NCBI RefSeq assembly: GCF_000264455.2
Contig: NC_017957.2
Span: 310,001 to 374,000, forward strand
Length of the DNA stretch: 64,000 bases
Direction: 5' to 3'
Source: Tistrella mobilis KA081020-065
GTDB lineage: Bacteria; Pseudomonadota; Alphaproteobacteria; Tistrellales; Tistrellaceae
Below are positions 4,237-63,405 of this stretch, in pieces; position 1 is the first letter of the stretch, and each line of letters starts with the position of its first letter. The position numbers and the translations under genes were made by a program. The notes below the pieces were generated by a model, which saw nothing but the letters and a program-made list of their open reading frames with translations, made no database searches and had not been told where the DNA came from.

Positions 4237-5081
4237 GGGCCGTGGCGACGCTTGCGACCCATCACCCGGCGCCGCTGTATACAGAGGCCGGCCTCCCCAC
4301 CCGGCCGCGCTGGCGATCGGCCGCCGAAGCGCCGCTGACCGCGGACAGCCTGCGCGCGCTGTTGGATGACGAGATCCCGGCGATCCGCATCCCCGGCTTC
4401 GCGAGCCCTGCCGAATGTGCGGCCTTTGCGCAGGCGGTCTCGGACGCGGATCTCTCCTATTACAGCGTCAAGCGGCGGATCGGTTATATCGGCCTCGCCC
4501 AGTATGAATATCGCTGGGACCGGCCCAAATCCGACTATTTCCGCGATGCCGCCCTGGTCGAGGCGCGGCGCGATGCGGTGCAGGCCCGGGCCTTCGACGC
4601 GGTCGGGCGGCTGATCGACCGGCTGGCGGCGGTGAGCCCCGCCGGTGTCGGCATCGCCGAAGAGGCGGGCGGGCGCTATTATGCCGGCATCATCCGGCAT
4701 GCCTCGGAAGGCGTGGATCTGCATGCCGACTGGGCGCCGGTCAATTCGCCTGCCTATGACATCGCGGCGATCGATGCGCAGCTCGGCTGGAATTTCTATG
4801 CCCAGGAGCTGGTGGAGGGGGGCGAGACCACCATCCATCACGCGCCCTGGACGCCTGCGCACGCGCCGGGCGAGATCCCGCAAAGCTACGGCCTGCCTCC
4901 TGAGACCGTGGCCGGCGCCGAGCGCTTCACCTTCCGCGCGGTCGCGGGCGACGTGGTCATCTTCAACACCCGCAACCCGCACGAGATCGCAGGCGGCCGC
5001 GCCGCCCCGGGCCATGACCGCATCTCCATCGGCTCCTTCATCGGCCGCCTCCCCACGGGCCGGCTGGTCCTGTGGTCGTGA
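4233..5081 (+). CDS. 2OG-Fe(II) oxygenase-family protein
   Basis: About 282 residues from GTG 4233 (GTGA overlap with the cupin stop); GTG 4242 is an alternative and neither has a strong Shine-Dalgarno sequence. The C-terminal half shows an iron-binding facial triad: H164-x-D166 in DLHADW, distal H250 in TRNPHEI, and R263 (DRISIGSFI) in the usual 2-oxoglutarate position. Such enzymes hydroxylate or dealkylate small molecules using O2 and 2OG. As second gene it may start degradation of the operon's substrate. Substrate unknown. Confidence 0.72.
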   Translation: MRAVATLATHHPAPLYTEAGLPTRPRWRSAAEAPLTADSLRALLDDEIPAIRIPGFASPAECAAFAQAVSDADLSYYSVKRRIGYIGLAQYEYRWDRPKSDYFRDAALVEARRDAVQARAFDAVGRLIDRLAAVSPAGVGIAEEAGGRYYAGIIRHASEGVDLHADWAPVNSPAYDIAAIDAQLGWNFYAQELVEGGETTIHHAPWTPAHAPGEIPQSYGLPPETVAGAERFTFRAVAGDVVIFNTRNPHEIAGGRAAPGHDRISIGSFIGRLPTGRLVLWS

Positions 5082-5092
5082 TGGATGACAAT

Positions 5093-5136
5093 CACCAACC
5101 TCAACCAATCCTGGCACCAACCTCAACCAATCCTGG
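5093..5136 (+). repeat. 22-bp tandem duplication
   Basis: Two exact copies (5093-5114 and 5115-5136), each beginning CACCAACCTC and ending CCAATCCTGG, in the gap between the oxygenase and the racemase-like gene. It has no coding role that I can see. Confidence 0.9.
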
Positions 5137-5207
5137 CTCCCAGCCGCCATTGAGGCGGCGGCCAAGGGTGCGGCAGCACCCGCTTGGGCCGAGGGGCTAA
5201 CATAACT

Positions 5208-5966
5208 ATGAAAGAGACTCCCATGGGCGACAGTCTCGGGTGGCGTGCCAAGTTCGGCGTGCTGGTCCCCAGCACCAATACCAGTGTCCAGCCTGAATTC
5301 GACCGGATGGCGCCCCATGGCGTCACCAGCCATATTGCCCGGATTGCGATCCCCAATATTGCGATCCACAATGACGACGACTTCAACGAGCTGATCCGGC
5401 TGATCGCCGAGGCGCAGATGGCCGCGGTGGACAGTGTGATGTCATGCGAGCCCGACCGTCTGGTGCTCGGCATCTCGGCCGAAACCTTCTGGGACGGGCT
5501 TGCCGCCAGCCGGAAGCTGAAGGCGGAGCTGGAGGCCCATACCGGGCTGCAGGTCTCGATGGGCTCCGATGCCTGTCAGGCGGCGTTGGGCATCTATGGC
5601 GCGAAGCGCATCGCGGTGATCACGCCCTATCAGCCGGTCGGCGACCGCAATGTCGTGCGCTTCTTCGAGGAATGCGGCTACGAGGTGCCCCGGATCAAGG
5701 GGCTGAAATGCGCAAGCCCGGTAAAGATCGCCCATGTCCAGGAGGCGGAACTTGCCGCCGCGATCCGCGAGGTCGACGGGCCCGATGTCGACGCCGTGGT
5801 TCAGGTGGGCACCAACCTCGCCATGGCCCGGCTGGCCGGTTTCGCCGAAACCTGGCTGGGCAAGCCGGTGATCGCGATCAACACCGCCATCTTCTGGCAT
5901 GCCCTGCGTGCCCAGGGGATCGACGACCGGATCGATGGCTGGGGATCGCTGCTGCTGAAGCACTGA
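5208..5966 (+). CDS. Asp/Glu racemase superfamily; maleate isomerase/arylmalonate decarboxylase-like
   Basis: About 252 residues. FGVLVPSTNTSVQPEFDRM at the N-terminus and MGSDACQAALGIYGAKRIAVITPYQPVGD in the centre (quoted here as a landmark; key residue the Cys of SDACQ) are typical of maleate isomerase and arylmalonate decarboxylase relatives. Confidence 0.7.
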   Translation: MKETPMGDSLGWRAKFGVLVPSTNTSVQPEFDRMAPHGVTSHIARIAIPNIAIHNDDDFNELIRLIAEAQMAAVDSVMSCEPDRLVLGISAETFWDGLAASRKLKAELEAHTGLQVSMGSDACQAALGIYGAKRIAVITPYQPVGDRNVVRFFEECGYEVPRIKGLKCASPVKIAHVQEAELAAAIREVDGPDVDAVVQVGTNLAMARLAGFAETWLGKPVIAINTAIFWHALRAQGIDDRIDGWGSLLLKH

Positions 5967-5980
5967 AGAAGGCTGCCATC

Positions 5981-6685
5981 GTGACGCCCCCCACCGATAT
6001 CGAGACCGCCCCACCCGAAACAGCCCTGGCGCGTGCCTATGCCACCATCCGCACCGGCATTCTGGAGGGCCGTTTCGCCCCCGGGGACCGGTTGCGGGAA
6101 GAGCATCTGGCCGAGATTTCGGGCGTCAGTCGCACACCCGTTCGTGAAGCGCTCCGCCGGCTCGCCACCGAAGGGCTGGTGGAGCTGACCCCCGGTCTCG
6201 GCGCCTTCGTGTCGAGCTGGAGCGTGACCGATCTGGAAAACATCTTTGCCGTCCGTGCGTTGGTGGAGGCGGCTGTGGCGGAGCAGGCCGCCCGGCATCT
6301 GACGGCCACCGATATCGACGCGCTGGAGGCGCTGGCGGCCGGGATGGAGGATCTGGCGGCCCGCCGGCCGGCCGGCTTCCTCGACCGGATCACCGGTCTC
6401 AACCATGACTTCCACACCCGCATCGCCGCCGCCTGCGGCAATGACCGCCTGGCCGGGCTGCTGACCCAGACCGTCGATCTGATCCTGGTTCACCGCACCT
6501 TCCGGCGCTATCACGACCGCCAGCTTGTCCGCAGCATGGCCCATCACCGCGAGCTGGTGGACGCCTTCCGCGCGCGGGACGCCGACTGGGCGGGCGCCGT
6601 GATGCGCGCCCATGTCCATGCCGCCCGCCATGCGCTGGTGGCCGATCTTTCCCTCTCCCCTCCGGCCGAACCGAAAGCCCCCTGA
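5981..6685 (+). CDS. GntR-family regulator, FCD domain
   Basis: A 234-residue protein from GTG 5981, with GAAGAAGG upstream. The winged-helix domain holds REEHLAEISGVSRTPVREAL (about 39-58) followed by LVELTPGLGAFVS. The C-terminal all-helical FCD domain shows the His/Asp metal-site pattern (NHDFHTRIAA, MAHHRELVDAF, HVHAARH). FCD regulators normally repress catabolic operons until an organic-acid effector binds. It lies inside the operon whose promoter carries two matching palindromes (3738, 3789), so it is very probably the operon's own repressor. Confidence 0.87.
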   Translation: MTPPTDIETAPPETALARAYATIRTGILEGRFAPGDRLREEHLAEISGVSRTPVREALRRLATEGLVELTPGLGAFVSSWSVTDLENIFAVRALVEAAVAEQAARHLTATDIDALEALAAGMEDLAARRPAGFLDRITGLNHDFHTRIAAACGNDRLAGLLTQTVDLILVHRTFRRYHDRQLVRSMAHHRELVDAFRARDADWAGAVMRAHVHAARHALVADLSLSPPAEPKAP

Positions 6686-13471: not shown

Positions 13472-14680
13472 CTATACCCCCGGCAGCAGCATGATCGTCG
13501 GAAAACCGCCGAGGGCGGGGACCGTCCAGCGGCGGGTGCGGCCGCGGCCGGTGGGGCGGACGCGGCCCGTGGCTGCCAGGCGTTCCATGAGGCGCTGTAT
13601 GGTGCGCGGGCTGGTGCCGAGGGCGACGGCGAGTGCCGTGGTCGACCAGGCCTCGCCATCGGCGAGCAGGGCGAGGATGCGGCCGCAGCCGGCCTCGATC
13701 GGCGGGTCGAGCAGGGCGACCGGGCCGGGGCGGGCGGGGTGCAGAACGAAGCCGGCCGGGGTGGCATGGATCCGGGCGAGCGGGTGGAGCAGGCGGCGCA
13801 GGCGGCCGATCTCGACCCGGAGCCGGGCGCGGTGGCTCTCGTCGGCGGTGCGGCCGCCGAAACCTTCGCGGATCAGCACCGCGCGCGGCACATCGGCCGG
13901 ATGGGCCAGCGCCAGCCGGCGGGCCAGCGCGAACAGCACCGGGCGGGTGGCGAGCTGACGGGTTTCCTTGGCGTCGCGGATGATCAGCCGGCAGGCATCG
14001 ACGACCAGGGCCGCTTCTGCCGGCAGGGCCTCTATCTCGGCCAGCGTGACCATGCGGTCGGTGCCGGCCCGGACCAGCCGCGCCGCCGGAGCGTCGAGCT
14101 GGCGGCGGGCGGTGGCCACCTCGGCTACGAGTTCGGCGATGCCGCTGGCCGCGGCCGCCGCCGCGGCGGCATCGAGGTCACGGGCGGCTTCGGCCGCCGC
14201 GATCCGGCGGGCGGCGATGCCGGCCCGGGTCAGGTGCAGCCCGGCCGCAAGGGCCGTCGGGATCCGGCCGGGATCGAGCCCGGCGATCGCGTCGCCGGCG
14301 GCGCCCGGCTGGCCGATCAGCAGCAGGCGGCGGGCCTCGATGATCCGGGCATGGGCGGCATTGGCATGGTCGCCGGCCGCTTCCAGCACCGCGCGGGTGC
14401 GGTCCAGAAGGCCCGGCGGCCAGGCGATGTCGCGCAGCACCAGGGCGATTTCGGCCTCGGCCAGGTTGCAGCGCGCCCGCGCCGCCGGATTGCCGCGGCC
14501 GAAGCCCCGTCCGGCCCGGGCGAGCAGATCCCGCGCCCGGCCGAATTCGCCGAGCCTTGCCATGACGATGCCGCGCAGCGCCAGCGCCGGCGGGTCGTCG
14601 CGGAGCGACACGCGATTGAGGGCGCCCAAAAGGTCGCCCGCCGCCAGGGCGCGGGCGGCGGCGGTGATCAGCGCATCCAT
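13472..14680 (-). CDS. Helix-turn-helix regulator with N-terminal helical repeats
   Basis: A 402-residue protein. The first 200 residues are Ala-rich helices in TPR-like register (ARALAAGDLLGALNRVSL, AHARIIEARRLLLIGQ). The middle VVDACRLIIRDAKETRQLATRPVLFALA and HRARLRVEIGRLRRLL resemble OmpR-like DNA-binding regions of response-type regulators. The C-terminus holds a clear HTH, TTALAVALGTSPRTIQRLMERLAATGRV. It probably controls the neighbouring beta-propeller gene. No enzyme motif seen. Confidence 0.65.
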   Translation of the reverse strand: MDALITAAARALAAGDLLGALNRVSLRDDPPALALRGIVMARLGEFGRARDLLARAGRGFGRGNPAARARCNLAEAEIALVLRDIAWPPGLLDRTRAVLEAAGDHANAAHARIIEARRLLLIGQPGAAGDAIAGLDPGRIPTALAAGLHLTRAGIAARRIAAAEAARDLDAAAAAAAASGIAELVAEVATARRQLDAPAARLVRAGTDRMVTLAEIEALPAEAALVVDACRLIIRDAKETRQLATRPVLFALARRLALAHPADVPRAVLIREGFGGRTADESHRARLRVEIGRLRRLLHPLARIHATPAGFVLHPARPGPVALLDPPIEAGCGRILALLADGEAWSTTALAVALGTSPRTIQRLMERLAATGRVRPTGRGRTRRWTVPALGGFPTIMLLPGV

Positions 14681-15401
14681 GGCTCTCTGCCGATCGTCGC
14701 TCAGGCACGCAGGATAGCACGAGGACCGGCAGCTGCCGTCATGGCGTTTTTTACTTCACGAGACCAAGGGGCGCGACGCACCGTTCGCCATGCCCGACGG
14801 ACAGTCCCATGGATGGCGATGCGATCCATGTGGTCCAGATCAAAGGCCGGTATCGCGAGATGTCGCTGCCATGCTGCGAAGTATTGGACGGATATATGTT
14901 TCGCTATGCGAACGATCGTGCGTGAAATCGCCATCCCGGGCAAGAGGAGGCTGGTTCCGGCAAGACGATAGCCTGACGGAAGAGGGTGCAAGTGGTGGTC
15001 GGGTGGCGGATCCGGCATCACCCGCCGCGTGAATAGACCATGCCGGTGATGCTGGGCCGGTTTAACGACCCCCTCTTGTCGAATCCGGTCTGATCAGGCC
15101 CGTGATGGACGATGGGGCTGCGGATATGTCCTGCGGTCAGATTCCATGGATATGAAAACGAAATACGCATGGGCGAAAATCTGGACTTGATCCGGGCCAT
15201 CCTCATACTGAAGCCCAAGAGGGCAACGGGTCCGACGTGGTGACCTGCGCAATACCCGGACAGATCCTCTTCAATGCAAAACGAGTCATGGGCGTTCCGG
15301 ATACCCCATCCGGGATGAGGGTGAGGTTTCGTGCCGATACCTTCTCATGAACTCGCAAATAAAGACCGCCGCAAGGCCAGGTCTTCAGGGAGGTTAAGGA
15401 C
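14681..15401. other. Intergenic region, 721 bp
   Basis: No supportable gene; short ORFs here have no recognisable sequence. It carries the promoter region of the ABC transporter operon. A dyad CCGGAT-ACCCC-ATCCGG at 15297-15313, about 90 nt before the SBP start, could be a leader hairpin or operator. Confidence 0.5.
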
Positions 15402-16541
15402 ATGCGACGTCGCATTCTCGCGACTGCGGTCACCATGACCGCGGCGATGGTTCTGGCCGGCGCAGCGCTGGCGGCGGATCCCGTCCGGATCGGTGTGGCG
15501 GCCCCGTTCACGGGTGCGGCGGCGGGCTATGGGCGCGATGCGAAGATGGGCGCCGAGATGGCTGCGGCCGAGATCAACGCCGCCGGCGGCATCCTGGGCG
15601 GGCGGCAGATCGAACTGGTCTACGAGGACGACAAGGGCACGCCGCAGGGCGGTGTCGCGGCGGTGCAGAAGCTGATGTCCGAGCACCGGGTGCAGGCGAT
15701 CACCGGTGGCACCAACAGCTCGGTCGTGCTGGCCGAGACCTCGGTCACCAAGAACCGCATCCTGCAGGTGAATGCGGCCGCCCAGGCCGATGCGATCACC
15801 GAGCAGGGATCGAAATGGCTGTTCCAGATCAACAACACCGCCTCGGCCAATTCCGAGGCCTTCAACGGCTACATCACCGGCACGCTGAAGCCGAAGACGG
15901 TCGCCTATATGGGTGAGAATTCGGAGTTCAGCAAGGCGCTGCTCGCCGGTCTGCGCAAGTCGCTGGATGCCGCCGGCATCCCGCTGGTCAATGTTGCGAC
16001 CTATGATGCCAACATCACCGATTTCACCTCGATCATCAGCAAGGTGAAGGCGTCGGAACCCGAACTGCTCTATGTCGCCGACGCCTATCCCGCGCGCTCG
16101 GCCCAGCTCTGGAAGCAGATCCGCCAGCAGGGCGGCTTCCCGGTCGAGACCCAGGCGCCGGGCGTGGTGCAGGCCTCCATGCTGACCCCGGCCGAGGGCG
16201 CCATGGACGGCGTGATCACCGGTGACATCTTCATCGCCGAAGGCAATACCGGCCCGATGGCCGATTTCGTCGAAGCCTTCCGCAAGTCGCATCAGGCCGA
16301 GCCGAACAAGGTCCATCTGGTGACCTACGAGGCGGTGCAGGTGATCGCCCGGGCAATGGACAAGGCCGGCAGCGCCGATGATTACGATCTGATCGCGAAG
16401 ACCATCCGCACCAATCCCTGGCCGTCACCGCGTGGTGAACTCACCTTCGACGATCGCGGCCGGGCCCGGGCGCCGCAGTTCTACATCCACGAGGTGAAGG
16501 ACGGCCGGCTGACGCTCCGCGAGACCATCGAGAACCGTTGA
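15402..16541 (+). CDS. Branched-chain amino acid-type ABC transporter, substrate-binding protein
   Basis: A 379-residue periplasmic protein with Sec signal MRRRILATAVTMTAAMVLAG and AxA cleavage (ALAA). DPVRIGVAAPFTGAAAGYGR, MAAAEINAAGGILGGRQIEL and VYEDDKGTPQGGVAAVQKL are typical of the LivK/Leu-Ile-Val-binding type I fold. This family also binds aromatic acids, amides and urea. The location ahead of a CoA-dependent catabolic set suggests import of an organic acid or amide. Confidence 0.92.
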   Translation: MRRRILATAVTMTAAMVLAGAALAADPVRIGVAAPFTGAAAGYGRDAKMGAEMAAAEINAAGGILGGRQIELVYEDDKGTPQGGVAAVQKLMSEHRVQAITGGTNSSVVLAETSVTKNRILQVNAAAQADAITEQGSKWLFQINNTASANSEAFNGYITGTLKPKTVAYMGENSEFSKALLAGLRKSLDAAGIPLVNVATYDANITDFTSIISKVKASEPELLYVADAYPARSAQLWKQIRQQGGFPVETQAPGVVQASMLTPAEGAMDGVITGDIFIAEGNTGPMADFVEAFRKSHQAEPNKVHLVTYEAVQVIARAMDKAGSADDYDLIAKTIRTNPWPSPRGELTFDDRGRARAPQFYIHEVKDGRLTLRETIENR

Positions 16542-59682: not shown

Positions 59683-60686
59683 GTTTCGGGCCGCGCCCGC
59701 AAGGATGCGACTCTTGTCGACGACAGCCTCAATCTGAGACTGCCCGCTTCAATCCACGCACCCGCAAGGGTGCGACTCGCCTACGCCGAGTTGCCGGATC
59801 CCATCGCCGGGTTTCAATCCACGCACCCGCAAGGGTGCGACCTGATCTTCCACCGACACCCCCATCCAGACGTTCGGTTTCAATCCACGCACCCGCAAGG
59901 GTGCGACCCTATATCGGCAGCGATGCCGACAAGGAGGCCAAGTTTCAATCCACGCACCCGCAAGGGTGCGACGCGGGGAGGGGGCTACCTCCACCTGGGG
60001 TCACGCGTTTCAATCCACGCACCCGCAAGGGTGCGACGGCGTAAATCTCTATTCGGCATCTGAAGTCTCTGTTTCAATCCACGCACCCGCAAGGGTGCGA
60101 CTGGAGATAGCCCGGGGACAGCGCCTCTTGCAGGTTGTTTCAATCCACGCACCCGCAAGGGTGCGACCACTCCTCAGCCGAATAGTATCCCCCGCCCGGA
60201 GGGTTTCAATCCACGCCCCCGCAAGGGTGCGACCGTCATGGACGGCTACCGCGATGAGACATTGCGGTTTCAATCCACGCACCCGCAAGGGTGCGACGCC
60301 GATAATCTGGCCGCCCGAACTGCGCGCCTGGTTTCAATCCACGCACCCGCAAGGGTGCGACCTCGCTCATTTCGGCTCCCTTTCGACGGCGTCGGTTTCA
60401 ATCCACGCACCCGCAAGGGTGCGACAATTCGATCTGACCGCGGAGGTGCGCGATCAGATCGTTTCAATCCACGCACCCGCAAGGGTGCGACGGCAGGTCG
60501 CCTTGGCCACCAGACTTGATATCGCTGTTTCAATCCACGCACCCGCAAGGGTGCGACTCTTGTCGACGACGGCCTCGATCTGGGAAGTGCTGTTTCAATC
60601 CACGCACCCGCAAGGGTGCGACTATCACGCCGCCCTGGGGGCGGTACTGGAAACCGTTTCAATCCACGCACCCGCAAGGGTGCGAC
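59683..60686 (-). CRISPR. Type I-C-like CRISPR array, 15 repeats plus one degenerate
   Basis: Fifteen near-identical 31-bp repeats (first base at 59746, 59811, 59877, 59942, 60007, 60071, 60137, 60203, 60267, 60331, 60395, 60461, 60527, 60592, 60656), plus a degenerate 29-bp copy at 59683-59711. Plus-strand repeats start GTTTCAATCC and end GGGTGCGAC; the reverse ends in GGATTGAAAC, the 5' handle expected of type I-C, so transcription is leftward. Spacers are 33-35 bp. The CGCACCC/GGGTGCG stem is broken in the 60203 copy (A to C), and the 59746 copy has T to C. The leader lies right of 60686. No cas gene in the window. Confidence 0.96.
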
Positions 60687-61127
60687 TCACCCCCTCTTAA
60701 TAGCCTGAATCCGCAGCCGGAAAAAGGCGATCTGCGCGAACCTCCGCTGGAGACCATCTAATAGTATGAACATGAATAAAGGGTAAAATTTAAGTCTTTG
60801 AAAAGAGAGAGATATTTTCTCCGCGAACCTCCCGGGATTTTTACGGGAGATTGGGGTTCGCGGGCGAGGCGGGGCGGGTCCTCGGGCGGTATATCGTCGG
60901 TCCGGCGTGAGGGCTGACGGTTGCCTTTCGCGAGGATGACGGTATGCATTCTGGACGGAGATCGGCAGGTATGGAACCCGACATGGGCTTCAGACACCGG
61001 CCTGTGTGTTGCGGGATGGCGGATCCGCCTGCCCCACACCCCTTGCCCCGCGCCGTCCTCTCCCTTAATTTCCAAAGGACGGCTTGGAATAACGCTTTGG
61101 CATGATCCCGAAAGGGCGAGGACGCGG
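60687..61127 (-). other. CRISPR leader region and intergenic DNA
   Basis: The 60690-60840 stretch becomes AT-rich (for example AATAAAGGGTAAAATTTAAG near 60774) in an otherwise GC-rich window, on the side from which I-C arrays are transcribed, so it is probably the leader. The rest up to 61127 contains no gene I can support. Confidence 0.6.
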
Positions 61128-61805
61128 GTGACCGACCCCTTGAGAGACCCTTCCCTGAGACAGGCAACGGGTACGGCCGACCGGCTGCTGACCCTGATCA
61201 AGACCGGGGGACCGGAAACCGCCGCGGTGCTGGGTCGTGCGCTGGGCACCACGGGGGAGAATGCCCGTCAGCAGCTGGTCAAGCTGGCGGCCGAGGGGCT
61301 GGTGGAGGCGCGGGCGGAGATCCGCGGCGTCGGCCGCCCGGCCCAGATCTGGCACCTGACCGATCGCGGCCAGGCTAGGTTTCCCGATGCCCATGCCGAG
61401 CTGACCGTCGCCCTGATCCGCCATGTCCGCGATCTTCTGGGCGAAGAGGCGCTCGACCGGCTGATCACCGCGCGCGAGGCCGAAACCCGTGCCGCCTATG
61501 ACGCGGCGCTGGCCGGCGCGACCGATCCGGAGGCGCGCCTCCAGGCGCTCGCCCGCCAGCGCAGCGCCGAAGGCTATATGGCCGAGGTGCAGCCCGCCCC
61601 CGACGGCGACGGCTGGCTGCTGATCGAAAACCACTGCCCGATCTGCGCCGCCGCCACCGCCTGCCAGGGCTTCTGCCGCGCCGAACTCGCCGTCTTCCGC
61701 GCGGTGCTGGGGCCCGGCTGCACGGTCACGCGCGAAGACCATATCCCGGCCGGCGGGCGGCGGTGCAGTTATCGGGTGCGTGCGGCGACGGGCACCAACC
61801 GGTGA
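61128..61805 (+). CDS. SufR-like winged-helix regulator with Cys cluster
   Basis: A 225-residue protein from GTG 61128 (GGGCGAGG upstream). The N-terminal DeoR/MarR-like HTH (ETAAVLGRALGTTGENARQQ, VKLAAEGLVEARAE) and the C-terminal Cys set C170-x2-C173-x5-C179-x3-C183 (HCPICAAATACQGFCRAEL) plus C213 resemble Fe-S-cluster-sensing regulators. It probably responds to Fe-S or redox status. Targets unknown. Confidence 0.8.
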   Translation: MTDPLRDPSLRQATGTADRLLTLIKTGGPETAAVLGRALGTTGENARQQLVKLAAEGLVEARAEIRGVGRPAQIWHLTDRGQARFPDAHAELTVALIRHVRDLLGEEALDRLITAREAETRAAYDAALAGATDPEARLQALARQRSAEGYMAEVQPAPDGDGWLLIENHCPICAAATACQGFCRAELAVFRAVLGPGCTVTREDHIPAGGRRCSYRVRAATGTNR

Positions 61806-61881
61806 GCTGCCGGAGCGCGAACAACCTGGTGGAAATTCTATCTCTCTGATAATATTCTAGAAAAGATTCTTGGAGGCGGCG

Positions 61882-61901
61882 TTGCATAACCTGTTATGCA
61901 A
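61882..61901. promoter_or_regulatory. Dyad before the solitary repeat
   Basis: TTGCATAAC-CT-GTTATGCAA, a 9-bp perfect dyad. A degenerate version (GCATAACCGTTTATGT) occurs at the same place before the second segment (about 62456-62471). Confidence 0.55.
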
Positions 61902-61967
61902 ATCAGTGGGAGCCGACGGAAATTGCCCCTTTCACAGGCCGCTTGACAATGGGTTGGAAGGAGGGGA

Positions 61968-62004
61968 GTTTGAGGTCATGACCATTTGCTCCGGTCATGG
62001 AAAC
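61968..62004 (+). repeat. Solitary copy of the 37-bp CRISPR-like repeat
   Basis: 37-bp unit starting GTTTGAGG and ending CATGGAAAC, with dyad arms CATGACC/GGTCATG. It is preceded at 19 nt by TTGACA (61943) and followed by the CAACCCGG hairpin. It differs from the 62676 copy at three positions. Confidence 0.75.
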
Positions 62005-62114
62005 CCCGCAACCCGGCCTCCCCGGGTTGTCGGCCGCTTCAGCCCTCCGGCCATCCGCGCGCCGCGCCGTTGATGTCCGGCGCTGTCGCCGCCAGGACCT
62101 CCACACCCTCCCCA

Positions 62115-62274
62115 CCGTCATCCCGGCGAAGGCCGGGATCCAGGTTCGTCCCCCCACAAAGACCACTGAATGCCCTGGTCCGGCGGTGATGGCCGACATG
62201 GTGGTCCGCACGCCCGGTTGCCTGTCCATTCTCGTGGAAGCCTACCTGGATCCCGGCCTTCGCCGGGATGACGG
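62115..62274. repeat. 30-bp perfect inverted-repeat pair (REP/MITE-like)
   Basis: 62115-62144 (beginning CCGTCATCCCGGCGAAGG) and its exact reverse complement at 62245-62274, flanking 100 bp. This element resembles the GTCATCCCGGCGAAGGCCGGGA palindromic intergenic repeats frequent in alphaproteobacteria (core quoted in part only). A degenerate arm is present in the second segment near 62825. Confidence 0.8.
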
Positions 62275-62539
62275 TAGAGGGGGTGTGCGGTGGGTGGCGA
62301 GGTTTGGATCGGACATAGAGGCCAGGCTTTTGGGGGTGGTTTTGCGGGGGCGTCCCGGGTCGCGGGGGTATGTGAGCCGCGGCCGACTGCGAATAACCCA
62401 GTGGAATTATTATGCTGTTGATTTTATTTTGGAAAAAGAAATAGTGGACCGGGACGCATAACCGTTTATGTAAATGGCTTGAACCCGACGGAAACCGTGC
62501 TTTTCGGAGGGCCCTTGACAAAGGCTTGGAAGGAGGGGA

Positions 62540-62712
62540 GTTTGAAGGCATGACCAATCGCTCCGGTCATGGAAACCACGCGGCGGAGGGAGTGCCACCG
62601 CAATAGAGTTTGAAGGCATGACCAATCGCTCCGGTCATGGAAACTGCGCCGGTGTGGGCGCCGGAGGCTGCGTGGGTTTGAAGGCATGACCATTTGCTCC
62701 GGTCACGGAAAC
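62540..62712 (+). CRISPR. Candidate second CRISPR mini-array: three 37-bp repeats, two 31-bp spacers
   Basis: Repeats at 62540-62576, 62608-62644 and 62676-62712. The first two are identical; the last has four changes (CATTT for CAATC, CACGG for CATGG). Repeats start GTTTGAAGG and end GGAAAC with internal dyad CATGACC/GGTCATG. Spacers 62577-62607 and 62645-62675 are both 31 bp and unrelated. The block is led by TTGACA 19 nt before the first repeat. It is not related to the type I-C repeat. No cas genes nearby, so a CRISPR identity remains unproved. Confidence 0.5.
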
Positions 62713-63042
62713 CGCGCAACCCGGTCTCCCGGGTTGCCGGCCAGTTCACCCCTCTGACCATCCGCGCACCGCGCCGTTGATGTCCGGCGCTGCCGCTGCC
62801 AGTCCCGGCACACCCTCCCCACCGTCATCGCGGCGAAAGGCAATTTTCAGCGTCCATGCCGGATGGTGGTGCGCAGCCGGTCGGCCGTCGTGCCAGCCTT
62901 TAAGCATGACGATCCGGATGTTGAAGTGGGGGCATTGCCGGGGAATGGGTGCGCAAGGCGATATGCGACGGGTCATTTCGGCACGATGCCCGGTCGGCCG
63001 CCGACACGGGGTCAGGCCGCCTGTGTCATCGCCGTTCCCATC

Positions 63043-63405
63043 TCATTCCGTCCGCGGAACGCCGGTCAGTCTTCGCTGCTCATGCGCCCGCAGAAGCCGC
63101 TCTCGAAGATGATTGAAGAACCCGGGCGGCAGCACGCCATAATGGAAGCGCGGCGGCGTCTGTCCCGGAACGGGGCGAAGATCCGGTCCCGGCCACAGAA
63201 ACTCGTTGGTCTCTGAGACAAGGACCCATGACCGGGCCTCATCCAGGCCCAGATGTGCCTTCACGGCCAGCGGGATCTCCACCGCGTCGGCGGAATCACG
63301 CGGTGGTGTGTGCGTGACCGGCAGAACGGTCACGACCATGCGCCCCGCGATGATCTGGCGAGCAGCGACAATGGCACAGGGGCGGTTTTTCCGGCCCTCT
63401 TCCAT
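63043..63405 (-). CDS. PemK/growth-inhibitor-like toxin, N-terminus uncertain
   Basis: About 120 residues from ATG 63405. MEEGRKNRPCAIVAARQIIA, TVLPVTHTPPRDSADAVEIP, SWVLVSETNEFLWPGPDLRP and YGVLPPGFFNHLRERL fit a PemK/MazF-like toxin family. Homologues, as I recall them, start earlier with a Y-L-W-x2-E segment; here that segment (YSYLWAEEHAKG) is present in frame but is cut off by the antitoxin TGA and has no start codon. It is 48 nt after the antitoxin. Confidence 0.68.
   Translation of the reverse strand: MEEGRKNRPCAIVAARQIIAGRMVVTVLPVTHTPPRDSADAVEIPLAVKAHLGLDEARSWVLVSETNEFLWPGPDLRPVPGQTPPRFHYGVLPPGFFNHLRERLLRAHEQRRLTGVPRTE

What the first reader, a model, noticed from the sequence alone, without database searches (positions are those of the whole stretch)
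62540..62712. Second, unrelated CRISPR-like mini-array with a matching 'naive' single-repeat locus next door
Three 37-bp repeats (GTTTG...GGAAAC, internal dyad) are separated by two spacers of exactly 31 bp that are unrelated to each other. At 61968 a solitary copy is flanked by the same upstream (dyad, TTGACA 19 nt before the repeat, GGAAGGAGGGGAG) and the same downstream sequence (CAACCCGG hairpin, then a conserved stretch). The downstream repeat 62676 shares its variant core (CATTTGCTCC) with the solitary copy, so it is the ancestral terminal repeat. Leader + one repeat + trailer versus leader + three repeats/two spacers + trailer is what spacer acquisition would produce. Type is not I-C. 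Alternative: dispersed intergenic repeats that happen to be evenly spaced.
Basis: partly seen in the sequence, partly recalled or inferred. Interest (0 to 1): 0.85.

Follow-up and report, generated by a model that had tools for sequence, protein, structure and literature searches.

The report
Satellite CRISPR arrays, one still blank
This is a pair of small outlying memory banks of a bacterial immune system (a type III CRISPR with a reverse-transcriptase integrase), one holding two memories and the other none, and the matching banks in two related bacteria hold different memories, as expected if each bank is written to separately.

Summary
The 37-bp repeat at 61968 and 62540-62712 is that of a type III CRISPR-Cas system encoded 31-47 kb downstream, outside the window: Cas10, RAMP proteins, Cas6, a CorA-like protein, an RT-Cas1 fusion and Cas2, with two arrays of near-identical repeats. 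In the three genomes of the genus held here, 17 leaders at 8 sites share an invariant TTGACAA and a purine-rich block ending at the repeat. At site A the window has 1 repeat and no spacer, one relative has 1 spacer and another 2. At site B the window has 2 spacers, a relative 3. No spacer is shared, and both window spacers are absent from the other two genomes. No source of the spacers was found. Whether the lone repeat never had a spacer or lost them is unresolved. Satellite arrays and single-repeat arrays are known kinds. Less usual are the dispersed leader-repeat-trailer cassettes with blank and filled orthologues, and leaderless tandem repeat-trailer units in relatives whose junction lies exactly at the repeat's 5' end.

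The parts
61828..61967 (+). leader A: AT-rich start (GGTGGAAATTCTATC..), GCATAACCTGTTATGC dyad (61884-61899), CCGACGGAAA block, TTGACAA (61943-61949), purine-rich GGAAGGAGGGGA up to the repeat
   Evidence: alignment of 17 leaders from 3 genomes
61968..62004 (+). solitary 37-bp repeat of site A (no spacer)
   Evidence: orthologous site carries 1 spacer in G001 and 2 in G096
62005..62114 (+). trailer A, begins with a CAACCCGG..CCGGGTTG hairpin (62008-62030); kept at 10 of 10 instances of sites A-E
62073..62316 (.). imperfect palindrome (REP/MITE-like) overlapping and following trailer A; dispersed family in the genus, not specific to the arrays
   Evidence: (inverted arms 62073-62145 and 62244-62316)
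62396..62539 (+). leader B, same layout as leader A; dyad 62456-62471, TTGACAA 62515-62521
62540..62576 (+). repeat 1 of site B
62577..62607 (+). spacer 1, 31 bp; single copy in G000, absent from G001 and G096 (up to 3 mismatches)
62608..62644 (+). repeat 2 of site B, identical to repeat 1
62645..62675 (+). spacer 2, 31 bp; single copy in G000, absent from G001 and G096 (up to 3 mismatches)
62676..62712 (+). terminal repeat of site B, core CATTTGCTCC as in the solitary copy
62713..62822 (+). trailer B with hairpin 62716-62737

Best explanation
The two loci are satellite CRISPR arrays served in trans by a type III CRISPR-Cas system with an RT-Cas1 fusion, encoded 31-47 kb away on the same replicon. 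The leader plus first repeat is the landing site of the RT-Cas1/Cas2 integrase; each acquisition copies the first repeat and inserts a spacer of about 31 bp behind the leader (inferred). Transcripts would be cut by Cas6 at the repeat stem-loop and loaded on the Cas10/RAMP complex (inferred). Site B holds two memories; site A is a blank array (one repeat) that can be written, as its orthologues have been. Shown: the shared repeat and leader block, the cas genes, and different spacers at the same leader in related genomes. Inferred: activity today, RNA origin of spacers, processing, and whether blank means never filled or emptied by recombination between repeats.
For: The repeat also lies beside Cas6 and RT-Cas1 in the own genome: 4 full copies at C2:412313-412551 and 8 at C2:416206-416721, each array ending in a further degenerate repeat and holding 4 and 8 spacers. 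RT-Cas1 matches Pfam Cas1 (2.2e-57) and RVT_1 (1.8e-32), Cas2 3.1e-12, with a FADD motif at residue 219. Cas10 (3.2e-33), Csm4/Csm3-like RAMPs (1.7e-66, 6.7e-58) and Cas6 (4.9e-225) match PADLOC models. Spacers at orthologous sites: A = 0/1/2 in G000/G001/G096; B = 2 (G000) and 3 (G096); C = 0 (G001) and 2 (G096); D = 2 and 2, different. TTGACAA in 17 of 17 leaders. Trailer at 10 of 10 instances of sites A-E. Among 34 spacers no non-self match longer than 11 nt. Mean G+C of the 34 spacers 0.561 against 0.687 for random pieces of the window, 0 of 20,000 simulations as low. Repeat RNA folds to one 7-8-bp stem in 3 of 3 variants.
Against: No source found for either window spacer: phages none; plasmids one hit at E 0.5, 30 bases straddling repeat 1 and spacer 1, taken as chance; exact 21-22-nt cores in IMG/VR none. 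The two window spacers are G+C-rich (0.68, 0.81), so the composition argument does not hold for them; it also uses one G000 window as background for all three genomes. Fold z-scores of two of three repeat variants are modest (-1.26, -1.34). No sigma-70 promoter at the leaders. NCBIfam has no hit for Cas10 or Cas6 and Pfam's Cas6 hit is under its cut-off, so these names rest on PADLOC and, for Cas10, on one Pfam palm domain. G096 keeps filled arrays although relatives of Cas6 and Cas10 were not found in it, so filled arrays do not prove present activity. Only three genomes of the genus are held.
Confidence: 0.88

Rival explanations
1. Site A is not a never-filled array but an emptied one: it lost its spacers by recombination between repeats and may be a relic. 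This changes the history of the locus, not its nature, and so overlaps with the best explanation.
For: Arrays contract by repeat recombination (established knowledge). The cas locus has decayed in G096, so relic arrays exist in the genus. Leaderless repeat-trailer units in G001 and G096 show that these repeats are rearranged.
Against: The solitary repeat is intact and identical to the distal repeat of site A in G001, leader and trailer are intact, and the own genome keeps the whole cas set. None of this excludes contraction.
Confidence: 0.45
2. A dispersed intergenic repetitive element (REP/MITE family) that happens to be evenly spaced, with no CRISPR function.
For: A REP/MITE-like palindrome follows trailer A and is dispersed through the genus; in G001 the repeat is part of 353-bp tandem units.
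Against: The palindrome family occurs without the repeat elsewhere. The repeat also bounds arrays beside Cas6 and RT-Cas1. Spacers at the same leader differ between genomes.
Confidence: 0.03
3. The solitary leader-repeat-hairpin unit makes a small repeat RNA that occupies Cas6 or the effector, like the solitary-repeat RNA anti-CRISPRs of phages, perhaps as self-regulation.
For: Layout of leader, one repeat, hairpin; G001 has 12 leaderless repeat copies. Repeat-mimicking solitary units are described in phages (PMC10651486, start of abstract seen in the listing; PMC8616872, passages).
Against: The same leader carries spacers in two relatives; no sigma-70 promoter was found by consensus; the tandem copies lack the leader.
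Confidence: 0.06

Closest known systems
Type III CRISPR-Cas with RT-Cas1 (Marinomonas mediterranea, Arthrospira platensis)
   Same: RT-Cas1 and Cas2 beside type III effector genes and arrays; no spacer source found, as for almost all RT-linked spacers of A. platensis (PMC5513706, passages). RTs linked to Csm-type (A-D) effectors are listed in a survey (PMC5541045, passages)
   Different: Cas6 is a separate gene here, unlike the Cas6-RT-Cas1 of M. mediterranea (PMC11014452, passages); the effector is nearest to PADLOC III-D models; a CorA-like protein lies between the two cas-linked arrays; satellite cassettes with their own trailer lie tens of kb away
Satellite (cas-less) CRISPR arrays sharing leader and repeat with cas-linked arrays (recalled)
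   Same: shared repeat and leader block, presumably served in trans
   Different: satellites A-E also share a 110-bp trailer not seen behind the cas-linked arrays, and two of them are blank in one genome each
Single-repeat CRISPR loci allowed for in Escherichia/Salmonella (PMC2886076, passages)
   Same: a CRISPR position that holds one repeat
   Different: type I systems there (recalled); here a type III RT-Cas1 system, with filled orthologues of the blank sites
Solitary repeat units / RNA anti-CRISPRs (PMC10651486, abstract start; PMC8616872, passages)
   Same: one isolated repeat resembling the host's
   Different: full CRISPR leader, and spacers at the same leader in relatives

Membership tests
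CRISPR array | near-identical direct repeats separated by unique spacers of similar length | tested here: met
   site B: 3 repeats, spacers 31 and 31 nt; site A alone has one repeat and does not meet it by itself
CRISPR array | leader next to the first repeat, shared with cas-linked arrays | tested here: met
   17 leaders aligned, TTGACAA in 17 of 17
CRISPR array | same repeat as arrays beside cas genes in the genome | tested here: met
   12 further copies next to Cas6 and RT-Cas1
CRISPR array | spacers vary between strains at the same locus | tested here: met
   sites A, B, C, D and H compared between two or three genomes
CRISPR array | spacers match mobile elements | tested here: inconclusive
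   no match for the 2 window spacers in phages, plasmids or IMG/VR cores; the 8-spacer array has no phage match; the other spacers were not put to these collections except 4 by codon-degenerate pattern
CRISPR array | processed crRNAs | not testable with these tools
   no RNA data
RT-Cas1 type III CRISPR-Cas | RT fused to Cas1, with Cas2 | tested here: met
   FADD motif
RT-Cas1 type III CRISPR-Cas | Cas10 and RAMP effector genes | tested here: met
   PADLOC Cas10 3.2e-33, RAMPs 1.7e-66 and 6.7e-58; TIGR03986 above its cut-off
RT-Cas1 type III CRISPR-Cas | spacer acquisition from RNA | not testable with these tools
   a coding-strand test of 34 spacers was weak: reverse strand better in 19, forward in 9, tied in 6
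Type I-C CRISPR (neighbouring array) | same repeat as the I-C-like array upstream | tested here: not met
   GTTTCAATCCACGC.. against GTTTGAAGGC..: unrelated by eye; the I-C label is recalled
RNA anti-CRISPR (solitary repeat unit) | solitary repeat outside a leader-array context | tested here: not met
   full leader and filled orthologues

The most novel reading that the evidence does not exclude
The genus keeps dispersed leader-repeat-trailer cassettes as blank landing pads, and the integrase itself multiplied some of them: in relatives, leaderless repeat-trailer units are joined head to tail at exactly the 5' end of the repeat, the point where Cas1 joins new DNA, so Cas1-mediated joining of a DNA end to the repeat could build new repeat units and perhaps new arrays.
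Probability: 0.12. Interest if true: 0.75.

Novelty: new member of a known kind. Interest (0 to 1): 0.45.

Why it matters
Array finders usually need at least two repeats (recalled), so blank arrays are rarely catalogued. Here blank sites and their filled orthologues can be compared directly in an RT-Cas1 system, which makes two questions testable in one genus: how much leader and repeat an RT-Cas1 integrase needs, and whether blank satellite arrays are reserve capacity or relics. A trailer kept at the satellite arrays only, and the exact repeat-boundary junctions of the tandem units, are leads on how arrays are born and copied.

Tried and rejected
Rfam: 15 weak matches, none reaching its gathering score, all on the I-C-like array. 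Sigma-70 promoter and terminator scan of 61700-63100: one promoter-like site on the other strand, none at either TTGACA; no terminator-like site. Plasmid collection, 1.2 kb around the loci: no match. Exact repeat pattern in GTDB contigs and IMG/VR: none (the tool says that records near the window may be left out, as it does). Relatives: 94 of 96 genomes have no copy of the repeat; the two that have it are G000 and G001. RT-Cas1 in 385 genomes of the class: 4 have a match at E 1e-60, the three of the genus and G247, the last over residues 1-292 only; G247 has no copy of the repeat. Codon-degenerate patterns for 4 other spacers in IMG/VR: 3 none, 1 hit with 23 of 32 bases, taken as chance. Strand bias of the spacers: weak. 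Empty site of locus F in G000: the gene before it was found, but what follows has diverged, so no clean empty site. Direct repeats in the 18-kb stretch with the second RT-Cas1-like gene of G096: none with the settings used. Papers: RT-Cas1 + type III + Tistrella, 0; Tistrella + CRISPR, 9, none of which seems from title and abstract start to concern these arrays; empty CRISPR array and related terms, 3, none holding 'empty CRISPR array'; trailer + orphan array and others, 0. The name Tistrella is recalled from genome size and replicon number; no call gives it. Cas6 matches a PADLOC profile over its full 325 residues at 4.9e-225, which suggests that this or a nearly identical protein was in the set from which the profile was made, so the cas locus itself is probably already catalogued.

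Full report
What is there. Four copies of a 37-bp repeat lie at 61968, 62540, 62608 and 62676. The last three are separated by two 31-bp spacers. Each of the two loci has a leader of the same layout in front and the same hairpin trailer behind. No other stretch of the window comes nearer than 15 mismatches.

Where it belongs. The window is G000:C2:310001-374000. The own genome has 12 more copies of the repeat within 3 mismatches of the pattern, all at C2:412.3-416.7 kb. They form two arrays (5 and 9 repeats counting degenerate terminal ones; 4 and 8 spacers). Around them are genes for Cas10 (403619-405373), RAMP proteins (to 411208), Cas6 (411205-412182), a 1122-aa protein with a CorA-like part (412664-416032, minus strand), RT-Cas1 (416875-418866) and Cas2 (418867-419184). 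Subtype: one RAMP protein matches a PADLOC III-D model best and another matches TIGR03986 above its cut-off; I call it III-D-like and do not insist. NCBIfam gives nothing for Cas10 or Cas6, and Pfam's Cas6 hit is under its cut-off. From the last window repeat it is 31 kb to Cas10, 44 kb to RT-Cas1 and 46 kb to the end of Cas2.

Comparison between genomes. Of 96 genomes searched as relatives, 2 have the repeat, G000 and G001; a third genome of the genus, G096 (labelled same species by the tool), came in through RT-Cas1 and has it too. Sites were matched by leader and flank. Spacers per site, in the order G000 / G001 / G096: A 0 / 1 / 2; B 2 / leader B not seen / 3; C not found / 0 / 2; D not found / 2 / 2; E not found / not found / 3; F (leader core and repeat only, no trailer) not found / 0 / 0; G (beside Cas6) 4 / 1 (up to a degenerate terminal repeat, read) / not found; H (beside RT-Cas1) 8 / 4 / 1. 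'Not found' rests on the repeat pattern with up to 3 mismatches. So 4 of 17 leader instances have no spacer: A in G000, C and F in G001, F in G096. Of the 34 spacers taken by script (the one at site G in G001 was not among them), no two share more than 11 nt. Both window spacers occur once in G000 and not in G001 or G096 with up to 3 mismatches.

Leader and trailer. In the alignment of 17 leaders TTGACAA and GGAAG are invariant, and a G-rich run follows up to the repeat; CCGACGGAAA or a near form is kept outside site F; the GCATAAC..GTTATGC dyad is seen, with small changes, in sites A-E. The sigma-70 scan found no promoter there, so I read the TTGACA as part of an integrase landing site rather than as a shown promoter (inference). 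The 110-bp trailer is kept at 10 of 10 instances of sites A-E and is not seen, by eye, behind the cas-linked arrays of G000 and G001.

Repeat variants and polarity. In site B repeats 1 and 2 are identical and the terminal one differs, as growth at the leader end gives. But repeats 1 and 2 carry the core AATCGC, not the ATTTGC of the solitary copy, so they are not simple copies of the present terminal repeat; a change or conversion of the leader-proximal repeat must have come first. All three repeats of site A in G096 are of the AATCGC type, so repeats seem to be exchanged between arrays.

Spacer source. Mean G+C of 34 spacers is 0.561 against 0.687 for random pieces of the window (0 of 20,000 simulations as low; one G000 window served as background for all three genomes). 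This suggests foreign origin in general, but the two window spacers, at 0.68 and 0.81, do not show it. No source was found for those put to the collections: the 2 window spacers in phages, plasmids and, by exact cores, IMG/VR, the 8 of site H in phages, and 4 others by codon-degenerate pattern in IMG/VR (one chance hit). Lack of matches is reported for RT-linked spacers of Arthrospira (PMC5513706, passages seen).

Activity. G000 and G001 keep Cas6, Cas10 and RT-Cas1. In G096 the RT-Cas1 and CorA-like genes at site H are remnants, no relative of Cas6 or Cas10 is found at E 0.001, and a second RT-Cas1-like gene of 610 aa matches the Cas1 model well, the RT model weakly, and lacks the FADD motif by eye. 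Its filled arrays may therefore be fossils.

Tandem units. In G001 twelve repeats without leader stand behind the sequence ATAGAG, most of them in 353-bp tandem units of repeat, trailer and palindrome. In G096 there are three such copies, two of them with a degenerate repeat start. In 15 of 15 the repeat, or its degenerate form, begins directly after ATAGAG. In the window (62315-62320), in L084 (as ATAAAG), at L085:4264 and at the end of the G001 tandem the sequence instead runs on as GCCAGG. The repeat's 5' end is where RT-Cas1/Cas2 of Marinomonas ligates spacers (PMC11014452, passages). All copies may descend from one junction, which may be chance or ordinary duplication; palindrome-bearing tandem arrays without the repeat are present elsewhere in G001.

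Verdict. The kind is known, and the Cas6 profile match suggests that the cas locus is already catalogued. Noteworthy are the blank and filled orthologues in an RT-Cas1 system, the satellite-only trailer and the repeat-boundary junctions.

Noticed in passing
L035:2783, 4313-6111, 14633-16078 (G001); L085:5056, 5409, 7077 (G096): Leaderless repeat copies in 353-bp repeat-trailer-palindrome units, joined exactly at the 5' end of the repeat (ATAGAG then the repeat; 15 of 15); two G096 copies have a degenerate repeat start.
   Followed up: partly
L011:4664-8032 (G000:C2:412664-416032, minus strand): 1122-aa protein between the two cas-linked arrays; residues 730-1000 match PADLOC CorA-like models; no Pfam family at E 0.01 and only three NCBIfam hits at E 0.05-0.26, taken as chance.
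   Followed up: no
L010:15619-17373 (G000:C2:403619-405373): The Cas10 palm motif reads GGDE at residue 356 where GGDD is usual (recalled).
   Followed up: no
L089:9146-10978 (G096, minus strand): 610-aa RT-Cas1-like protein with a well-matching Cas1 part and a weakly matching RT part without the FADD motif: an RT-Cas1 that seems to have lost its RT.
   Followed up: partly
L038:1715-1751 (G001) and L090:1400-1436 (G096): Solitary repeat with only the last ~27 bp of the leader, no trailer, no spacer; in G001 it lies beside an I-C-like array.
   Followed up: partly
window, about 59811-60688: I-C-like array (label recalled) just upstream, seen as weak Rfam CRISPR matches; the same repeat lies upstream of the corresponding loci in G001 (L035:335-1084; L038).
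   Followed up: no
L011:13697-14086: A predicted frame whose translation repeats motifs such as SPPVRGN and IPARAGEP, as translated I-E-type repeats do (recalled): perhaps a third kind of CRISPR array.
   Followed up: no
window 62073-62316 and many places in the genus: REP/MITE-like palindrome, dispersed and in places of G001:C1 amplified in tandem with periods of 336, 409 and 363 bp.
   Followed up: partly
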